Positions 35,713 to 41,297 of a stretch of 64,000 nucleotides of DNA are shown in pieces. Location of the stretch: the NCBI RefSeq assembly GCF_028767125.1, contig NZ_JAKCWP010000006.1, forward strand, positions 1 through 64,000, in the 5' to 3' direction. The notes beneath the pieces were generated by a model, which was not told the origin of the DNA, did no database searches, and saw nothing but the letters and a program-made list of their open reading frames with translations. Numbering within the stretch: position 1 is the stretch's first letter; every line of letters begins with the position of its first letter. This stretch comes from Chelativorans sp. YIM 93263. GTDB taxonomy: Bacteria > Pseudomonadota > Alphaproteobacteria > Rhizobiales > Rhizobiaceae. The translations under genes and the position numbers were made by a program.

Positions 35713-36510
35713 CTAGTTCAGAACGAGAAAGTCCTCGAGCTTGGCAGCCGCCTGCCGCAGCGCGGGCAACATGAGGCTGCGCATCTTGGAAGCCGAAACC
35801 CGCGCCGACTGGGTGGGAACGTTGATCGCCGCGACGATCCGCCCACCCCGCGCGTGCACGGGAACGGCAATCGAACGCAAGCCGAGCTCCAGTTCCTCGT
35901 CGACGATGGCGTAACCTGCCCGCCGAACCTCAGCGATGCTGGCCGCCAGCGCCTGCCTGTCCGTAACGGTCTTGGGTGTGTTGGCGCGAATCGGCGCCTG
36001 GTCCAGAAAACGGGTGAGCTCGGCATCATCCAAGTCTGACAGAAGCACCCGCCCCATCGATGTGCAATAGGCCGGCAGGCGCGTGCCGACCGAAAGCGAT
36101 ACGGACATAATCCGCCGGCCGGCCACCCGCGCGACATACACCACATCCTGCCCGTCCAGAATGGCGGCCGAGCAGGATTCTCCCAGCGTTTGCGAAACCT
36201 CGCGCAGGATGGGCTCCGCATGCGCCCAGAGCGACGAACCGCCGAGCCACGCCCGATTGAGCGACAGGAGCTTCGCGGATAGGAGAAACGTGCGCCCCTC
36301 CTGCCGGGCATAACCTTCCGCGACGAGCGTCAGAAGCAGGCGCCGCGCACCGGCGCGGGTCAGCCCGGCCTCTTCCGCCACTTCCGTCAGGCGAAGACCG
36401 GAGGGCGCCCGGGCCAGAATCTCCACCACGCCCAGCCCCTTGGCCAGCGATCCGACCAGATCGCGCGGACCGGCCCCCTCGCCCTGCATTGACTCGCTCT
36501 CGCTGCTCAT
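35713..36510 (-). CDS. IclR family transcriptional regulator (PcaR/PcaU-like)
   Basis: 265 aa. Winged helix-turn-helix at about residues 18-75 (LAKGLGVVEILARAPSGLRL, then LTRAGARRLLLTLVAEGYA), followed by the IclR effector domain (about 85-260) with SLSVGTRLPAYCTSMGRVLL and GLRSIAVPVHARGGRIVAAI. The GTRLPAYCTSMGR phrase is typical of the PcaR/PcaU/CatR branch that senses beta-ketoadipate or related aromatic breakdown products. AGGA lies before the ATG. It is divergent from pcaIJF, with a perfect inverted repeat between the starts, and so most likely activates that operon. Confidence 0.93.
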   Translation of the reverse strand: MSSESESMQGEGAGPRDLVGSLAKGLGVVEILARAPSGLRLTEVAEEAGLTRAGARRLLLTLVAEGYARQEGRTFLLSAKLLSLNRAWLGGSSLWAHAEPILREVSQTLGESCSAAILDGQDVVYVARVAGRRIMSVSLSVGTRLPAYCTSMGRVLLSDLDDAELTRFLDQAPIRANTPKTVTDRQALAASIAEVRRAGYAIVDEELELGLRSIAVPVHARGGRIVAAINVPTQSARVSASKMRSLMLPALRQAAAKLEDFLVLN

Positions 36511-36536
36511 CTATTCCTGTATCGCATATAAAACAT

Positions 36537-36555
36537 ATGTTCGCAATACGAACAT
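36537..36555. promoter_or_regulatory. Candidate IclR/PcaR operator
   Basis: Perfect inverted repeat ATGTTCG-caata-CGAACAT in the 58-base gap between the IclR gene (minus) and pcaI (plus). Its half-sites resemble the TTCG-type sites of PcaR/PcaU regulators. It is the only dyad in a gap so short that both promoters must overlap it. Confidence 0.7.
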
Positions 36556-36568
36556 TCGGAGGGCGATT

Positions 36569-37426
36569 ATGGCGCGCTTCATGCCGCTGGAACAGGCGGT
36601 GCGGGAAAACCTGAAAGACGGCGATACGGCGGCATTCGAGGGTTTCACGCATCTGATCCCTACTGCCGCCGCCCACGAGGCAATCCGGCAGGATCTCAAG
36701 GATTTAACGCTCATCCGCATGACGCCGGATGTGGTTTACGATCAGATGATCGGAATGGGGCTGGCGAAGAAGCTCGTCTTCTCCTACGCGGGCAATCCCG
36801 GTGTCGGTCTGCTGCGCCGCCTGCGCGATGCCGTGGAAAACGAGTGGCCGCACGCGATTGAAGTTGAGGAGCATTCCCACGCGGCCATGGCCAATGCTTA
36901 CGAGGCAGGCGCGGCTGGCCTGCCCTGCGCCATCTTCCGCGGCTATCGCGGCGCCGGCCTGCCGGAAGTCAATCCAAACATCAAAGCGATCACCTGCCCC
37001 TTTACCGGCGAGGAATTGGCCGCGGTCCTGGCCGTCCGCCCGGATGTCACCTTCATCCACGCGCAGAAGGCGGACAAGAAGGGCAATGTGCTGATCGAAG
37101 GCATTGTGGGCATCCAGAAGGAGGCGGTGCTGGCGGCAAAACGCGCGGTCGTGACCGTGGAAGAAATTGTCGACGACTTCTCCGACATCCATCCCAATCT
37201 TTGCGTGCTGCCGCATTGGACCGTGACCGCTATCGCCGAAGTGCCCGGCGGCGCCCATCCCTCCTACACGCACGGCTATTACGACCGCGACAACGCCTCC
37301 TACCTCGAATGGGAAGAGGTCTCCGCCGACCGCGACAGGTTCCAGGCGTGGATGGAGGAAAACGTGATCAACGCGAAGCCCGTGGACTTCGCCGCCCGGG
37401 TCGCAAAGCTGAAGGTGGCGAAATGA
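36569..37426 (+). CDS. pcaI: 3-oxoadipate CoA-transferase subunit A
   Basis: Alpha subunit of succinyl-CoA:3-oxoadipate CoA-transferase, which activates beta-ketoadipate to its CoA ester. 285 aa from ATG MARFMPLEQAVREN with GGAGGG upstream; the frame continues 43 codons upstream over the regulatory gap and is not used. CoA-transferase I pattern: AAFEGFTHLIPTAAAHEAIR, then LTLIRMTPDVVYDQMIGMG, and AHPSYTHGYYDRDNASYLEWE near the C-terminus, which is typical of the long pcaI/CatI type. It overlaps pcaJ by four bases (ATGA). Confidence 0.93.
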   Translation: MARFMPLEQAVRENLKDGDTAAFEGFTHLIPTAAAHEAIRQDLKDLTLIRMTPDVVYDQMIGMGLAKKLVFSYAGNPGVGLLRRLRDAVENEWPHAIEVEEHSHAAMANAYEAGAAGLPCAIFRGYRGAGLPEVNPNIKAITCPFTGEELAAVLAVRPDVTFIHAQKADKKGNVLIEGIVGIQKEAVLAAKRAVVTVEEIVDDFSDIHPNLCVLPHWTVTAIAEVPGGAHPSYTHGYYDRDNASYLEWEEVSADRDRFQAWMEENVINAKPVDFAARVAKLKVAK

Positions 37427-38194
37427 GCGACGTTACGCCCAATGAAATGATGACCATCGCGGCCTCGCGGGCGCTGACCAACGAGGATGTATGCTTCGTC
37501 GGCATCGGCGCGCCGTCCGCCGCCTGCAATGTCGCCCGCCTGACGCATGCGCCGGACATCACCCTGATCTATGAGTCCGGGACGATCGGCACCGCGCCCG
37601 ACGTGCTGCCGCTGTCGATCGGTGACGGCGAACTGTGCGATACAGCGCTGACCACCGTCTCCGTGCCCGAGATGTTCCGCTATTGGCTCCAGGGGGGGGC
37701 GCGTCACCATTGGCTTCCTGGGCGCCGCCCAACTCGACAAGTACGGTAACATCAACACCACTGTGATCGGCGACTATCATAAACCGAAAGTGCGCCTGCC
37801 TGGCGGCGGTGGCGCTCCGGAGATCGCCTCGTCTTCGCATGAAGTCTATATCACCATGGCCCAGTCCAAGCGCGGCATGGTGGAGAAGATCGACTTCTTC
37901 ACCTCCTTCGGCCATGGCGAAGGCGGTGACCACCGCAAGCGGCTCGGCATCGAGACCAAGGGGCCGACGCTGCTGATCACCGACCTCGCCATCTGGCGGC
38001 CCGACCCCGAGACGAAGGAGTTCACCGTCGTCTCGATGCATCACGGCGTGACGCGGGACATGGTGCAGGAAACCTGCGGCTGGGAAGTGAAATTCGCCGA
38101 CAAGCTGGAGGAAACTCCGCCGCCGTCCGAGCTCGAACTATCCACCCTGCGCGATCTCAAGGCGCGGACCGACGCCGCGCACCAACGCAAGTGA
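37423..38194 (+). pseudogene. pcaJ: 3-oxoadipate CoA-transferase subunit B, interrupted by a frameshift in a G8 run
   Basis: Beta subunit of the same CoA-transferase. The start overlaps the pcaI stop (ATGA). The first 91 or so codons read normally (SDVTPNEMMTIAASRALT; VGIGAPSAACNVARL; the catalytic-glutamate region IYESGTIGTAPDVLPL) up to YWLQGG. At 37692-37699 there are eight G; reading on in frame gives ARHHWLPG and a stop at 37749 (108 aa). If one G is removed, the frame continues as RVTIGFLGAAQLDKYGN, then joins INTTVIGDYHKPKVRLPGGG and runs to the stop at 38194, giving the expected 256 aa. So one extra G is the only defect. It could be a sequencing error, a true mutation, or a slippage-prone switch. 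All other family sequence is well kept, which argues for a recent or artefactual change. Confidence 0.9.
37692..37699 (+). other. Eight-G homopolymer at the pcaJ frameshift
   Basis: Run of eight G after CCA in pcaJ. Seven are needed to keep the family reading frame; the surrounding codons would be CAG GGG GGG CGC. Upstream reading frame and downstream frame differ by exactly one base. Confidence 0.95.
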
Positions 38195-38212
38195 CGACCA
38201 CCGGAGGAAATC

Positions 38213-39418
38213 ATGGCTGACGCCTTCATCTGCGACTATGTCCGCACGCCCATCGGCCGCTTCGGTGGCGCCCTGTCCTCCGTCCGGGCCGACGATCTGG
38301 CCGCGATCCCGCTCAAGACCCTGATGGAGCGCCATTCCGCCGTGGATTGGGCGGCCGTCGATGACGTCATCTATGGCTGCGCCAACCAGGCAGGCGAGGA
38401 CAACCGAAACGTTGCCCGCATGGCGGCTCTCCTGGCCGGCCTGCCCGTCGAGGTCACCGGCGCCACGATCAATCGCCTCTGCGGCTCCGGCATGGACGCG
38501 GTGACCTCAGCCGCCCGCGCCATCAAGGCGGGTGAAGCCGATCTGATGATCGCCGGCGGCGTCGAATCCATGAGCCGCGCTCCCTTTGTGATGCCCAAGG
38601 CCGAGACGGCCTTTTCGCGCAATGCGGAGATTTATGACACCACCATCGGCTGGCGTTTCGTCAATCCGCTGATGAAGAAGCAGTACGGCATCGATTCCAT
38701 GCCCGAGACGGGCGAGAACGTCGCCGAAGATTACGAGATCAGCCGCGCCGACCAGGATGCCTTCGGTGCACGCAGCCAGGAAAAGGCCGTTGCCGCGCAG
38801 GAGAATGGCCGGCTCGCCAGGGAAATCGTGTCGGTCACGATCCCGCAGCGCAAGGGCGATCCGATTGTCGTGGACAAGGACGAGCATCCCCGCCCCGGCA
38901 CGAGCGTGGAAAAGCTTGCCAAGCTGCCCACCCCCTTCCGCGAGGGCGGCACGGTGACCGCGGGCAACGCCTCGGGCGTCAATGACGGCGCTGCCGCCCT
39001 CATCATCGCCTCCGAGGAAGCCGCAAAGAAGTACGGTCTGACGCCCATCGCTCGCATTCTGGGTGGTGCAACGGCCGGCGTTCCCCCGCGCGTCATGGGC
39101 ATGGGCCCGGCCCCGGCCACGAAGAAGCTCTGTGCTCGGCTCGGGCTAAAACCGTCCGATTTTGACGTGATCGAGCTGAATGAAGCCTTTGCCTCGCAAG
39201 GGATTGCCGTTCTGCGCGAGCTCGGCATTCCCGAGGACGCCGCGCATGTGAACCCCAATGGCGGGGCCATCGCGCTCGGCCATCCGCTCGGCATGTCGGG
39301 TGCGCGCATCTCCGGCACGGCCGCGCTGGAGCTTAAAGAGCGTGACGCAAAACGGGCACTCGCCACCATGTGCATCGGCGTCGGCCAAGGCATCGCCATC
39401 GCGCTGGAGCGGGTCTAA
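38213..39418 (+). CDS. pcaF: 3-oxoadipyl-CoA thiolase
   Basis: Splits 3-oxoadipyl-CoA into succinyl-CoA and acetyl-CoA, the last step of the beta-ketoadipate pathway. 401 aa, the usual thiolase length. Catalytic residues: cysteine in NRLCGSGMDAV (about residue 90), histidine in NPNGGAIALGHPLGMSG (about 357) and the second cysteine in ATMCIGVGQGIAI (about 387). The PcaF-type start FICDYVRTPIGRFGGALSSV and the VESMSRAPFVMPKA segment are clear. GGAGGAAATC precedes the ATG. It follows pcaJ by 18 bases, so a polar effect of the pcaJ frameshift is possible. Confidence 0.96.
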   Translation: MADAFICDYVRTPIGRFGGALSSVRADDLAAIPLKTLMERHSAVDWAAVDDVIYGCANQAGEDNRNVARMAALLAGLPVEVTGATINRLCGSGMDAVTSAARAIKAGEADLMIAGGVESMSRAPFVMPKAETAFSRNAEIYDTTIGWRFVNPLMKKQYGIDSMPETGENVAEDYEISRADQDAFGARSQEKAVAAQENGRLAREIVSVTIPQRKGDPIVVDKDEHPRPGTSVEKLAKLPTPFREGGTVTAGNASGVNDGAAALIIASEEAAKKYGLTPIARILGGATAGVPPRVMGMGPAPATKKLCARLGLKPSDFDVIELNEAFASQGIAVLRELGIPEDAAHVNPNGGAIALGHPLGMSGARISGTAALELKERDAKRALATMCIGVGQGIAIALERV

Positions 39419-39804: not shown

Positions 39805-40542
39805 ATGAGTCTGGGCACCCAGGGGCGTGAGAATAGCGAGTTTTTGCCAGCACTTGATGCTGTCAGGGCGGCTGCGTCGGTAGAAACTGCAGTATTCGCC
39901 CTCAAGCTGGCCTATCGCATGGACCATGTTACGTTCCATGTCGCGAAGAACATGTCGGCACGGGTGGAAGAGCCCTATATCAAGACCACCTACCCTGCCG
40001 AGTGGGTGAAGCGCTATCTCGTACAAGGATACGTCGCCATCGACCCGGTGGTGCAACAGGGTTTTGCGCGCCGCCTCCCATTCCACTGGAGTGATCTGGA
40101 ACTGACACCCGAGGCGCGGGAATTGTTTCTAGATGCAGAGAGGTACGATGTGGGAACGACCGGATATACGATTCCGGTCGTTGACCGCGAGGCGCGGCGG
40201 TCGATCCTGTCGGTGACTTCCTCCCGGCCCGAACTGGAATGGCGAGCGTTTATTCAGCGCCACGGGACGGAACTGGCAGAAGCGGGCCATGCAATCCATC
40301 GCAAAGCGATGTACGAGCTCTATGGGGAACTTCACCATTTCCCCCACTTGAGCCATCGCGAGATCGAATGCCTGTCCTGGACCGCACAAGGCAAGGATGC
40401 GCCAACGATTTCGATGATTCTTCATCTTTCAGAACATACCGTCCGGGCTTATCTTCGCTCTGTCCGGTACAAGCTTGACTGCTCTACATTGTCCCAGGCG
40501 GTCGCGAAGGCAATGCAACTGCGCATCATCACTCCACCCTAA
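39805..40542 (+). CDS. LuxR family quorum-sensing transcriptional regulator
   Basis: 245 aa. The N-terminal autoinducer-binding domain keeps the six hallmark residues: W and Y in PAEWVKRYLVQGY, D and P in AIDPVV, W in FHWSDL, and G in GTTGYTIPV. The C-terminal GerE-type helix-turn-helix covers about residues 178-240 (LSHREIECLSWTAQGKDAPT, then LHLSEHTVRAYLRSVRYKL). GGGGAAG precedes the ATG. The luxI gene follows on the same strand after 110 bases. It is expected to bind the homoserine lactone made by that enzyme and control the locus; whether it activates or represses cannot be read from sequence. Confidence 0.94.
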   Translation: MSLGTQGRENSEFLPALDAVRAAASVETAVFALKLAYRMDHVTFHVAKNMSARVEEPYIKTTYPAEWVKRYLVQGYVAIDPVVQQGFARRLPFHWSDLELTPEARELFLDAERYDVGTTGYTIPVVDREARRSILSVTSSRPELEWRAFIQRHGTELAEAGHAIHRKAMYELYGELHHFPHLSHREIECLSWTAQGKDAPTISMILHLSEHTVRAYLRSVRYKLDCSTLSQAVAKAMQLRIITPP

Positions 40543-40574
40543 AATTACCGACAAATATTCACACGTATATATGA

Positions 40575-40606
40575 AGGTACGCAGATGAGGCATTTCTTGC
40601 GTACCT
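40575..40606. promoter_or_regulatory. Long inverted repeat between luxR and luxI, candidate operator
   Basis: Perfect 9-bp arms AGGTACGCA and TGCGTACCT separated by 14 bases, 47 bases before the luxI start codon. No T-run follows, so a terminator for luxR is less likely than an operator for LuxR or another regulator at the luxI promoter. Confidence 0.6.
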
Positions 40607-40652
40607 CTAATGGGTAACAATATCTCTGCTTGAAACAACAGCGGAGGCAAAA

Positions 40653-41297
40653 TTGTTTACCGCAATTGAACCACACCAGTATGATAAATGGAGCGGTATT
40701 CTTGACCAGATATACCGCCTGCGCAAGAAGACATTCCACGATGCGCTGAAATGGGACGTTCCCGTCGATGGAGATCACGAGCGGGATGCCTATGATGATC
40801 TCGGTCCCGTCTATCTGACATGGCACAATCCCGAGGGAACCAAGCTCTATGGAACGATGCGGCTAATGCCAACGACCGGCCCGACGCTGCTTTACGACGT
40901 ATTCTCAAATACTTTTCCCGACGCAGCGGCACTTTCCGCGCCGGGTATTTGGGAAGCGACGCGGACCTGCGTCCATCCCGGGAATCTGAAGGAGGACTTT
41001 CCGCATGTCCCGACCTGGAAGGCTTTTGGCCTGATCATGCTGGCCTCGGCCGAGTGCGGTTTGAGAAGCGGTATCCACACGATCGTCTCGAACTACGAGC
41101 CGCCCCTGAAGCGGGTTTACGACCGGGCGGGAGCCATCGGCGAGGAACTGGGCCGATCAGACGGTTACGGGCGATACCCGGTCTGCTGCGGCGCTTTTGA
41201 AGTTTCCGAGCGCGTCGTGCATCAAATGCGCGAAAAACTGGGAGTTAGAGGGCCGGTCTTCAACACGCCTGAAATCCCGCAAATTCTCGCGGCCTGA
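40653..41297 (+). CDS. Acyl-homoserine-lactone synthase (LuxI family)
   Basis: Makes an N-acyl homoserine lactone from S-adenosylmethionine and an acyl carrier protein ester. 214 aa from a TTG start, with GGAGGCAAAA directly upstream. The invariant residues of the family are in place: RLRKKTF and W in DALKWDVP (about residues 23-36), E, D and D in ERDAYDDLGP (about 43-52), R in GTMRLMPTTGP (about 69), and E and R in GIWEATRTCVHP (about 100-104). The C-terminal half has HTIVSNYEPPLKRVYDRAG, normal for the family. The rare TTG start may limit translation. The acyl chain is not predictable by eye. Confidence 0.95.
   Translation: MFTAIEPHQYDKWSGILDQIYRLRKKTFHDALKWDVPVDGDHERDAYDDLGPVYLTWHNPEGTKLYGTMRLMPTTGPTLLYDVFSNTFPDAAALSAPGIWEATRTCVHPGNLKEDFPHVPTWKAFGLIMLASAECGLRSGIHTIVSNYEPPLKRVYDRAGAIGEELGRSDGYGRYPVCCGAFEVSERVVHQMREKLGVRGPVFNTPEIPQILAA

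What the first reader, a model, noticed from the sequence alone, without database searches (positions are those of the whole stretch)
37423..38194. pcaJ broken by one extra G in a G8 run
The coding frame of the 3-oxoadipate CoA-transferase beta subunit shifts exactly at eight G (37692-37699). Both halves are well conserved and seven G would restore a 256-aa protein. If real, the beta-ketoadipate pathway is blocked at its CoA-activation step although pcaI and pcaF look intact. Long G runs are prone to slippage, so this may be a phase-variable switch, transcriptional slippage, a recent mutation or a sequencing error.
Basis: seen in the sequence. Interest (0 to 1): 0.68.

Follow-up and report, generated by a model that had tools for sequence, protein, structure and literature searches.

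The report
One-base frameshift in pcaJ gene
In this draft genome of a Chelativorans-like bacterium, a gene for one subunit of an enzyme that helps break down aromatic compounds is interrupted by one extra G in a run of eight Gs, most likely a very recent mutation or a sequencing slip rather than a new kind of switch.

Summary
Confirmed: the beta-subunit gene of a 3-oxoadipate CoA-transferase (37423-38194; nearest named relatives are Chelativorans) changes frame at G8 (37692-37699). Both halves (92 + 164 codons) are conserved; 13 of 15 other genus genomes have an uninterrupted same-type copy. In a family scan, 106 of 394 genomes matched the site and only this one has the extra base. It is the only CoA_trans (PF01144) pair found in its genome, while pobA, pcaC, H, G, B, D, I and F are open. 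If the base is real, protocatechuate breakdown should stop at beta-ketoadipate. The gene shows no decay, so the break is very recent or not in the cell. Phase variation is weakly supported: the run is private to this genome, and mutS and mutL are open. Four of four other G8/C8 runs in Pfam-recognised genes keep their frame, and pcaJ is the only locus split by all its queries among 71 compared. That argues against a generally poor assembly but does not exclude one base error.

The parts
37423..37698 (+). 5' half of pcaJ (beta subunit of a 3-oxoadipate CoA-transferase of the glutaconate-CoA-transferase-like type), 92 family-like codons
   Evidence: PF01144 profile positions 2-100 for 37423-37746; 92-99% identity to 15 chosen relatives
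37692..37699 (+). G8 run on which the frame changes; the relatives seen have one base fewer and, but for two, an interrupted run
37700..38194 (+). 3' half of pcaJ in the next frame, 164 codons and stop
   Evidence: PF01144 profile positions 121-216 for 37763-38191; 80-90% identity to 15 chosen relatives
37747..37749 (+). premature stop reached by ribosomes that stay in the starting frame (108-aa product)
36569..37426 (+). pcaI, alpha subunit, open, 285 aa; its stop overlaps the pcaJ start
   Evidence: PF01144; 78-86% identity over 281-285 residues to 15 chosen relatives
38213..39418 (+). pcaF, 3-oxoadipyl-CoA thiolase, open, 401 aa
   Evidence: TIGR02430 696.4 bits, cut-off 597
35713..36510 (-). 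PcaR-type IclR-family regulator, divergent, open
   Evidence: TIGR02431 320.8 bits, cut-off 284.75

Best explanation
A strain-private, very recent +1 frameshift by replication slippage. A synonymous C-to-G change in the first of two adjacent glycine codons made the local G run uninterrupted, and the run then grew by one base, giving G8. As written, the gene makes a 108-aa fragment without the C-terminal half, so the alpha-beta enzyme should not form, and beta-ketoadipate made from 4-hydroxybenzoate or protocatechuate should accumulate. Shown: the frame break, its uniqueness among the genomes seen, the open rest of the pathway, no second CoA_trans pair found, no decay. Inferred: that the base is in the cell's DNA, the two changes and their order, and the metabolic effect.
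For: Of 394 family genomes, 106 matched the site and only the own one has the longer spacing (read by eye from the listing). Uninterrupted runs at the site are rare: of the 100 rows (own included; not deduplicated, several genus genomes appear twice) only own (G8), Microvirga soli L054 (G7, frame open) and L017 (G6, frame open) have G6 or more. GGG is 16.4% of glycine codons on the contig, so the synonymous change is ordinary. Pair sole in genome by PF01144. dN is ordinary: own pcaJ median 0.067 to 15 chosen relatives, which have medians of 0.052-0.091 among themselves; 0 departures from columns at least 97% conserved among 89 other distinct proteins. 4 of 4 other G8/C8 runs in Pfam-recognised genes are in frame. 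pcaJ is the only locus split by all its queries among 71. Completeness 99.99%, 27 contigs.
Against: No reads, no second strain of the species in the collections used, sequencing technology unknown. The complete lack of decay in a sole, conserved gene fits a base error equally well. The own sequence differs from the usual one by two changes, and the intermediate (G7) is seen only in a distant genus. A survey of prokaryotic frame transitions expects unclustered frameshifts validated by BLASTp to be sequencing errors rather than genuine indels (PMC3711429, passages read).
Confidence: 0.52

Rival explanations
1. Base-call or assembly error: the cell has the ordinary number of bases and a functional gene.
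For: The break sits on a G8, a length that only 11 runs of the genome reach or exceed; the gene shows no decay and the partner genes are kept. A MAG in the comparison, L049, has a pcaJ in four frame pieces against one of the queries, best read as a poor assembly. PMC3711429 expects BLASTp-validated singletons to be sequencing errors (passages).
Against: Unlike L049, this genome shows one single break: 4 of 4 other G8/C8 runs in Pfam-recognised genes are in frame, and no other locus compared is split by most of its queries apart from the neighbouring pcaI-pcaJ stretch, which is the same break. Completeness 99.99%. None of this excludes one isolated error.
Confidence: 0.33
2. Leaky or slippage-rescued gene: RNA polymerase or ribosome slips on G8 often enough to make some full-length PcaJ, so the pathway still works at a low level.
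For: Frameshifting on a run of G is known at a very low level: a review describes one-G indels in a run of 7 G in herpesvirus thymidine kinase mRNA with enough residual product (PMC5009743, passage read). No decay of the downstream half.
Against: The site is not conserved in the relatives seen; the 100 bases from the run fold no better than shuffles (z 0.63). No measurement of slippage here.
Confidence: 0.1
3. Phase-variable metabolic switch: the run flips between lengths so that a subpopulation is on.
For: G or C runs can mediate slipped-strand phase variation, also in metabolism-associated genes (PMC3711429, passages).
Against: Private to one genome among those seen; the run lies about a third of the way into the gene (codon 92 of 256); mutS and mutL are open; the genome is not rich in G8: 12 overlapping G8 windows, fewer than 12 of the 15 other genus genomes, whose counts run from 5 to 57 and are partly inflated by very long runs.
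Confidence: 0.05

Closest known systems
3-oxoadipate CoA-transferase beta subunit of the GctB-like type (CoA_trans PF01144)
   Same: Both halves match PF01144; flanked by a PcaR-type regulator, pcaI and pcaF; uninterrupted same-type copies in 13 of 15 other genus genomes
   Different: Here interrupted by one base; not matched by the NCBIfam models of classical PcaI/PcaJ
Singleton frameshifted genes of the GeneTack survey (PMC3711429, passages read)
   Same: Single, unclustered break, supported by sequence comparison and Pfam, no conserved frameshift site
   Different: Lies on a G8 run in the sole copy found of a pathway gene
Slipped-strand phase-variable genes with G or C runs
   Same: Uninterrupted G8 in the coding frame
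   Different: No recurrence in the relatives seen, run away from the 5' end; variation between cells not testable here
Engineered pcaIJ-deleted or repressed Pseudomonas putida that accumulates beta-ketoadipate (PMC9460563, passages read)
   Same: Predicted metabolic effect if the break is real
   Different: Engineered in that work; here only inferred from sequence

Membership tests
3-oxoadipate CoA-transferase beta subunit (PcaJ/CatJ) | CoA_trans domain | tested here: met
   Both halves over the gathering score, complementary profile positions
3-oxoadipate CoA-transferase beta subunit (PcaJ/CatJ) | Operon-like order with alpha subunit and 3-oxoadipyl-CoA thiolase | tested here: met
   pcaI directly upstream, pcaF (TIGR02430) directly downstream; co-transcription not tested
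3-oxoadipate CoA-transferase beta subunit (PcaJ/CatJ) | Match to curated classical PcaI/PcaJ models | tested here: not met
   Beta halves: 0 NCBIfam families at E 0.001 (each half scanned apart, so at a disadvantage); alpha 31.8 bits against cut-off 128.5 (TIGR02429). So not filed as classical PcaIJ; the CatI/CatJ comparison is recalled, no call shows it
3-oxoadipate CoA-transferase beta subunit (PcaJ/CatJ) | Transfer of CoA to 3-oxoadipate | not testable with these tools
   Needs an assay
Phase-variable gene (slipped-strand mispairing) | Repeat run in the reading frame | tested here: met
   G8
Phase-variable gene (slipped-strand mispairing) | Variable run length between strains or cells | not testable with these tools
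   One genome per species held, no reads
Phase-variable gene (slipped-strand mispairing) | Run kept in related species | tested here: not met
   105 of 105 other matching family genomes have an interrupted run of ordinary spacing (by eye); only L017 (G6) and L054 (G7) of 99 other rows are uninterrupted, both in frame
Programmed frameshift or transcriptional slippage gene | Conserved frameshift site | tested here: not met
   Unique to this genome among those seen
Programmed frameshift or transcriptional slippage gene | Stimulating downstream structure | tested here: not met
   100 bases from the run fold no better than shuffles, z 0.63; pseudoknots not tested
Recent frameshift pseudogene | Conserved coding sequence, one disabling change | tested here: met
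Recent frameshift pseudogene | Change present in the cell's DNA | not testable with these tools
   Needs reads or resequencing
Sequencing or assembly error | Other homopolymer breaks in the same assembly | tested here: inconclusive
   4 of 4 other G8/C8 runs in Pfam-recognised genes in frame, 6 more judged from ORF maps only. Codon-use test of 41 runs of seven or more: 9 same frame, 2 changed (pcaJ and L143, which is a boundary between two genes), 30 no call. An isolated error needs no second one

The most novel reading that the evidence does not exclude
The G8 is a reversible length switch in a catabolic gene: most cells stop at beta-ketoadipate and release or hold it, while slippage revertants consume it, a division of labour in aromatic breakdown.
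Probability: 0.04. Interest if true: 0.6.

Novelty: new member of a known kind. Interest (0 to 1): 0.13.

Why it matters
If the base is real, this strain is a natural single-step blocked mutant of the protocatechuate pathway, predicted not to grow on 4-hydroxybenzoate and to accumulate beta-ketoadipate, as engineered pcaIJ strains of Pseudomonas putida do (PMC9460563, passages read). A pathway prediction from a gene list would then be wrong by one step. If it is a base error, the record needs correcting. Neither would surprise a specialist.

Tried and rejected
Second enzyme: not found; the three PF01144 matches of the genome are pcaI and the two pieces of pcaJ. Only the two protocatechuate dioxygenase subunits match PF00775, so no catechol ortho-cleavage enzyme of that family was seen. 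Mutator background: mutS and mutL are open; other repair genes were not looked at. Relaxed selection or old pseudogene: rejected. Reinitiation at GTG 37763 to make two cooperating fragments: considered; it would leave out the 21 codons 37700-37762, and I saw no ribosome-binding site by eye; no test was run. A promoter-like site at 37752-37780 was given no weight (1 found, 0.6 expected). L049 looked at first like an independent break beside the same glycine codons; one query (L076) splits its pcaJ into four frame pieces, so I did not count it as recurrence. Codon-use frame test around runs: of 41 distinct runs of seven or more, 9 same frame, 2 changed (pcaJ and L143), 30 no call; L143 is a boundary between two genes that I recognised by eye as pyruvate dehydrogenase E1 alpha and beta (no family search). 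In one search three further loci had some split queries: 36556-37698 (3 of 4, the pcaI-pcaJ stretch, same break), 35716-36720 (1 of 31) and 38153-39415 (1 of 52); the last two were not followed up, nor were the loci with coverage under 0.8 (7 listed, three of them the pcaI-pcaJ stretch, pcaJ and its duplicate L120). Its 71 loci come from mechanical ORFs grouped by overlap, antisense ones not removed, 63 on C24 and 8 in other stretches, some of which duplicate C24. Papers: the listings (6 of 6; 15 of 1,714; 15 of 67; 10 of 37; 3 of 3) name no pcaJ frameshift; these were seen as listings, and passages only were read of PMC3711429, PMC5009743, PMC9460563 and PMC2831843.

Full report
What is there. 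Between pcaI (36569-37426) and pcaF (38213-39418) lies a gene in two frames. From ATG 37423 the frame is open to a stop at 37747-37749 (108 aa); from 37700 the next frame is open to the stop at 38192-38194. The change of frame falls on eight G at 37692-37699, the only run of eight G or C in the window. Both halves match PF01144 at complementary positions, and an uninterrupted 256-aa relative aligns in two pieces that meet on the run. The run as such is not unusual for the base composition (3.54 expected per window by shuffling).

What the gene is. It is the beta subunit of a CoA_trans (PF01144) enzyme. Context (a PcaR-type regulator, TIGR02431; PcaF, TIGR02430) says 3-oxoadipate CoA-transferase. 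It does not fit the curated classical PcaI/PcaJ models: the beta halves, scanned apart, match no NCBIfam family, and the alpha subunit reaches 31.8 of 128.5 bits for TIGR02429. The best-scoring solved relative by sequence is glutaconate CoA-transferase 1POI, for the alpha subunit and for both beta halves. A likeness to CatI/CatJ of a chlorobenzoate-degrading Pseudomonas is recalled and comes from no call.

Whose genome. The window is on contig C24 of a 4.25-Mb, 27-contig assembly with completeness 99.99% and contamination 0.36%. The best named relatives by this gene are Chelativorans (sp. J32, multitrophicus, alearense, petroleitrophicus, xinjiangense, salis). No record of the genome itself was shown.

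How unusual the break is. Of 41 genomes (own included), 24 match the second half at E 0.001 and 20 of these at more than 50% identity; of the 15 other genus genomes, 13 have this gene uninterrupted, G010 has no CoA_trans gene and G013 only other types. Of the 99 other rows (19 unnamed relatives and 80 named loci, not deduplicated), 98 read through the site in one frame. The exception, L049, is a MAG whose pcaJ falls into four frame pieces against one query, best read as a poor assembly. A pattern that allows up to one base fewer or one more at the site matched 106 of 394 family genomes; only the own genome has the longer spacing, and the other 105 have an interrupted run (by eye; the pattern misses diverged sites and genomes without the gene). 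Uninterrupted runs with an open frame occur in Microvirga soli L054 (seven G) and L017 (six G).

Age of the break. Against 15 relatives chosen from the named loci, own pcaJ has dN 0.044-0.086 (median 0.067) and dS 0.61-1.19; the relatives have median dN of 0.052-0.091 among themselves. At columns at least 97% conserved among 89 other distinct proteins the own protein has no departure (many of the others also have none). So the gene was under selection until very recently, or still is.

Consequence if real. No other CoA_trans pair was found in the genome. The route into the block is there: pobA, pcaC, pcaH, pcaG and pcaB side by side on contig C26, each over the cut-off of its model, and pcaD on C2 at 346.1 bits against a cut-off of 255.85. 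Loss or repression of pcaIJ in Pseudomonas putida makes beta-ketoadipate accumulate (PMC9460563, passages). The same is inferred here, not shown.

Mutation, error or switch. The genome has 11 distinct runs of eight or more G or C (12 overlapping matches). Besides pcaJ, four lie in ORFs with Pfam domains (a histidine kinase, ferrochelatase, a pyridine-nucleotide disulphide oxidoreductase, an FG-GAP/UnbV protein) and all four read through. The other six were judged from ORF maps only, and I recognised no broken gene there. Of 46 runs of exactly seven, 30 were fetched. A codon-use test of all 41 runs held gave 9 with the same frame on both sides, 2 changed and 30 no call; the second change, L143, is a boundary between two genes. 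Among 71 own loci with a relative at 60% identity or more (63 on C24; mechanical ORFs, some duplicates), only pcaJ is split by all of its queries (45 of 45, and 7 of 7 for its duplicate L120); three others had some split queries, one of them the same break. In a first comparison with one relative's contig, 1 of 40 loci was split, pcaJ. So the assembly is not generally bad, but a single error cannot be excluded, and a survey of prokaryotic frame transitions expects BLASTp-validated singletons to be sequencing errors (PMC3711429, passages).

A phase-variable switch lacks support: the run is private among the genomes seen, lies at codon 92 of 256, mutS and mutL are open, and the genome has 12 G8 windows where the other 15 genus genomes have 5-57. 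In a study of 99 prokaryotic genomes, poly(G) runs were generally underrepresented, and placement near the 5' end was the mark of poly(A) and poly(T) runs (PMC2831843, passages). Low-level rescue by frameshifting on the run is possible in principle (PMC5009743, passage), but no conserved site or unusual fold is present.

Verdict. A correct observation of an ordinary event. Reads over a few dozen bases would settle it.

Noticed in passing
window 39805-41297: A LuxR-type regulator and a LuxI-type acyl-homoserine-lactone synthase follow pcaF directly (family hits below the curated cut-offs). tblastn at E 1e-6 found neither in the 80 named relatives' loci (0 of 80, some flanks short), so the pair looks like a private insertion beside the pca genes.
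   Followed up: partly
window 36537-36555: An inverted repeat of 8 pairs with a 3-base loop in the pcaR-pcaI intergenic region, listed as a terminator-like stem on the minus strand (3 such sites found, 2.6 expected); could be an operator.
   Followed up: no
L049:5605-6426: The pcaJ of the MAG Rhizobium sp. LANL01E falls into four frame pieces against one query, one break lying beside the same glycine codons; probably a low-quality assembly.
   Followed up: partly
L054: Microvirga soli R491 has seven uninterrupted G at the same site with an open 266-codon frame, an independent candidate for slippage.
   Followed up: no
L115:1501-1509: The longest G/C run among those found in the own genome is a C9 near the start of contig C2; whether it touches a gene was not tested by homology.
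   Followed up: no
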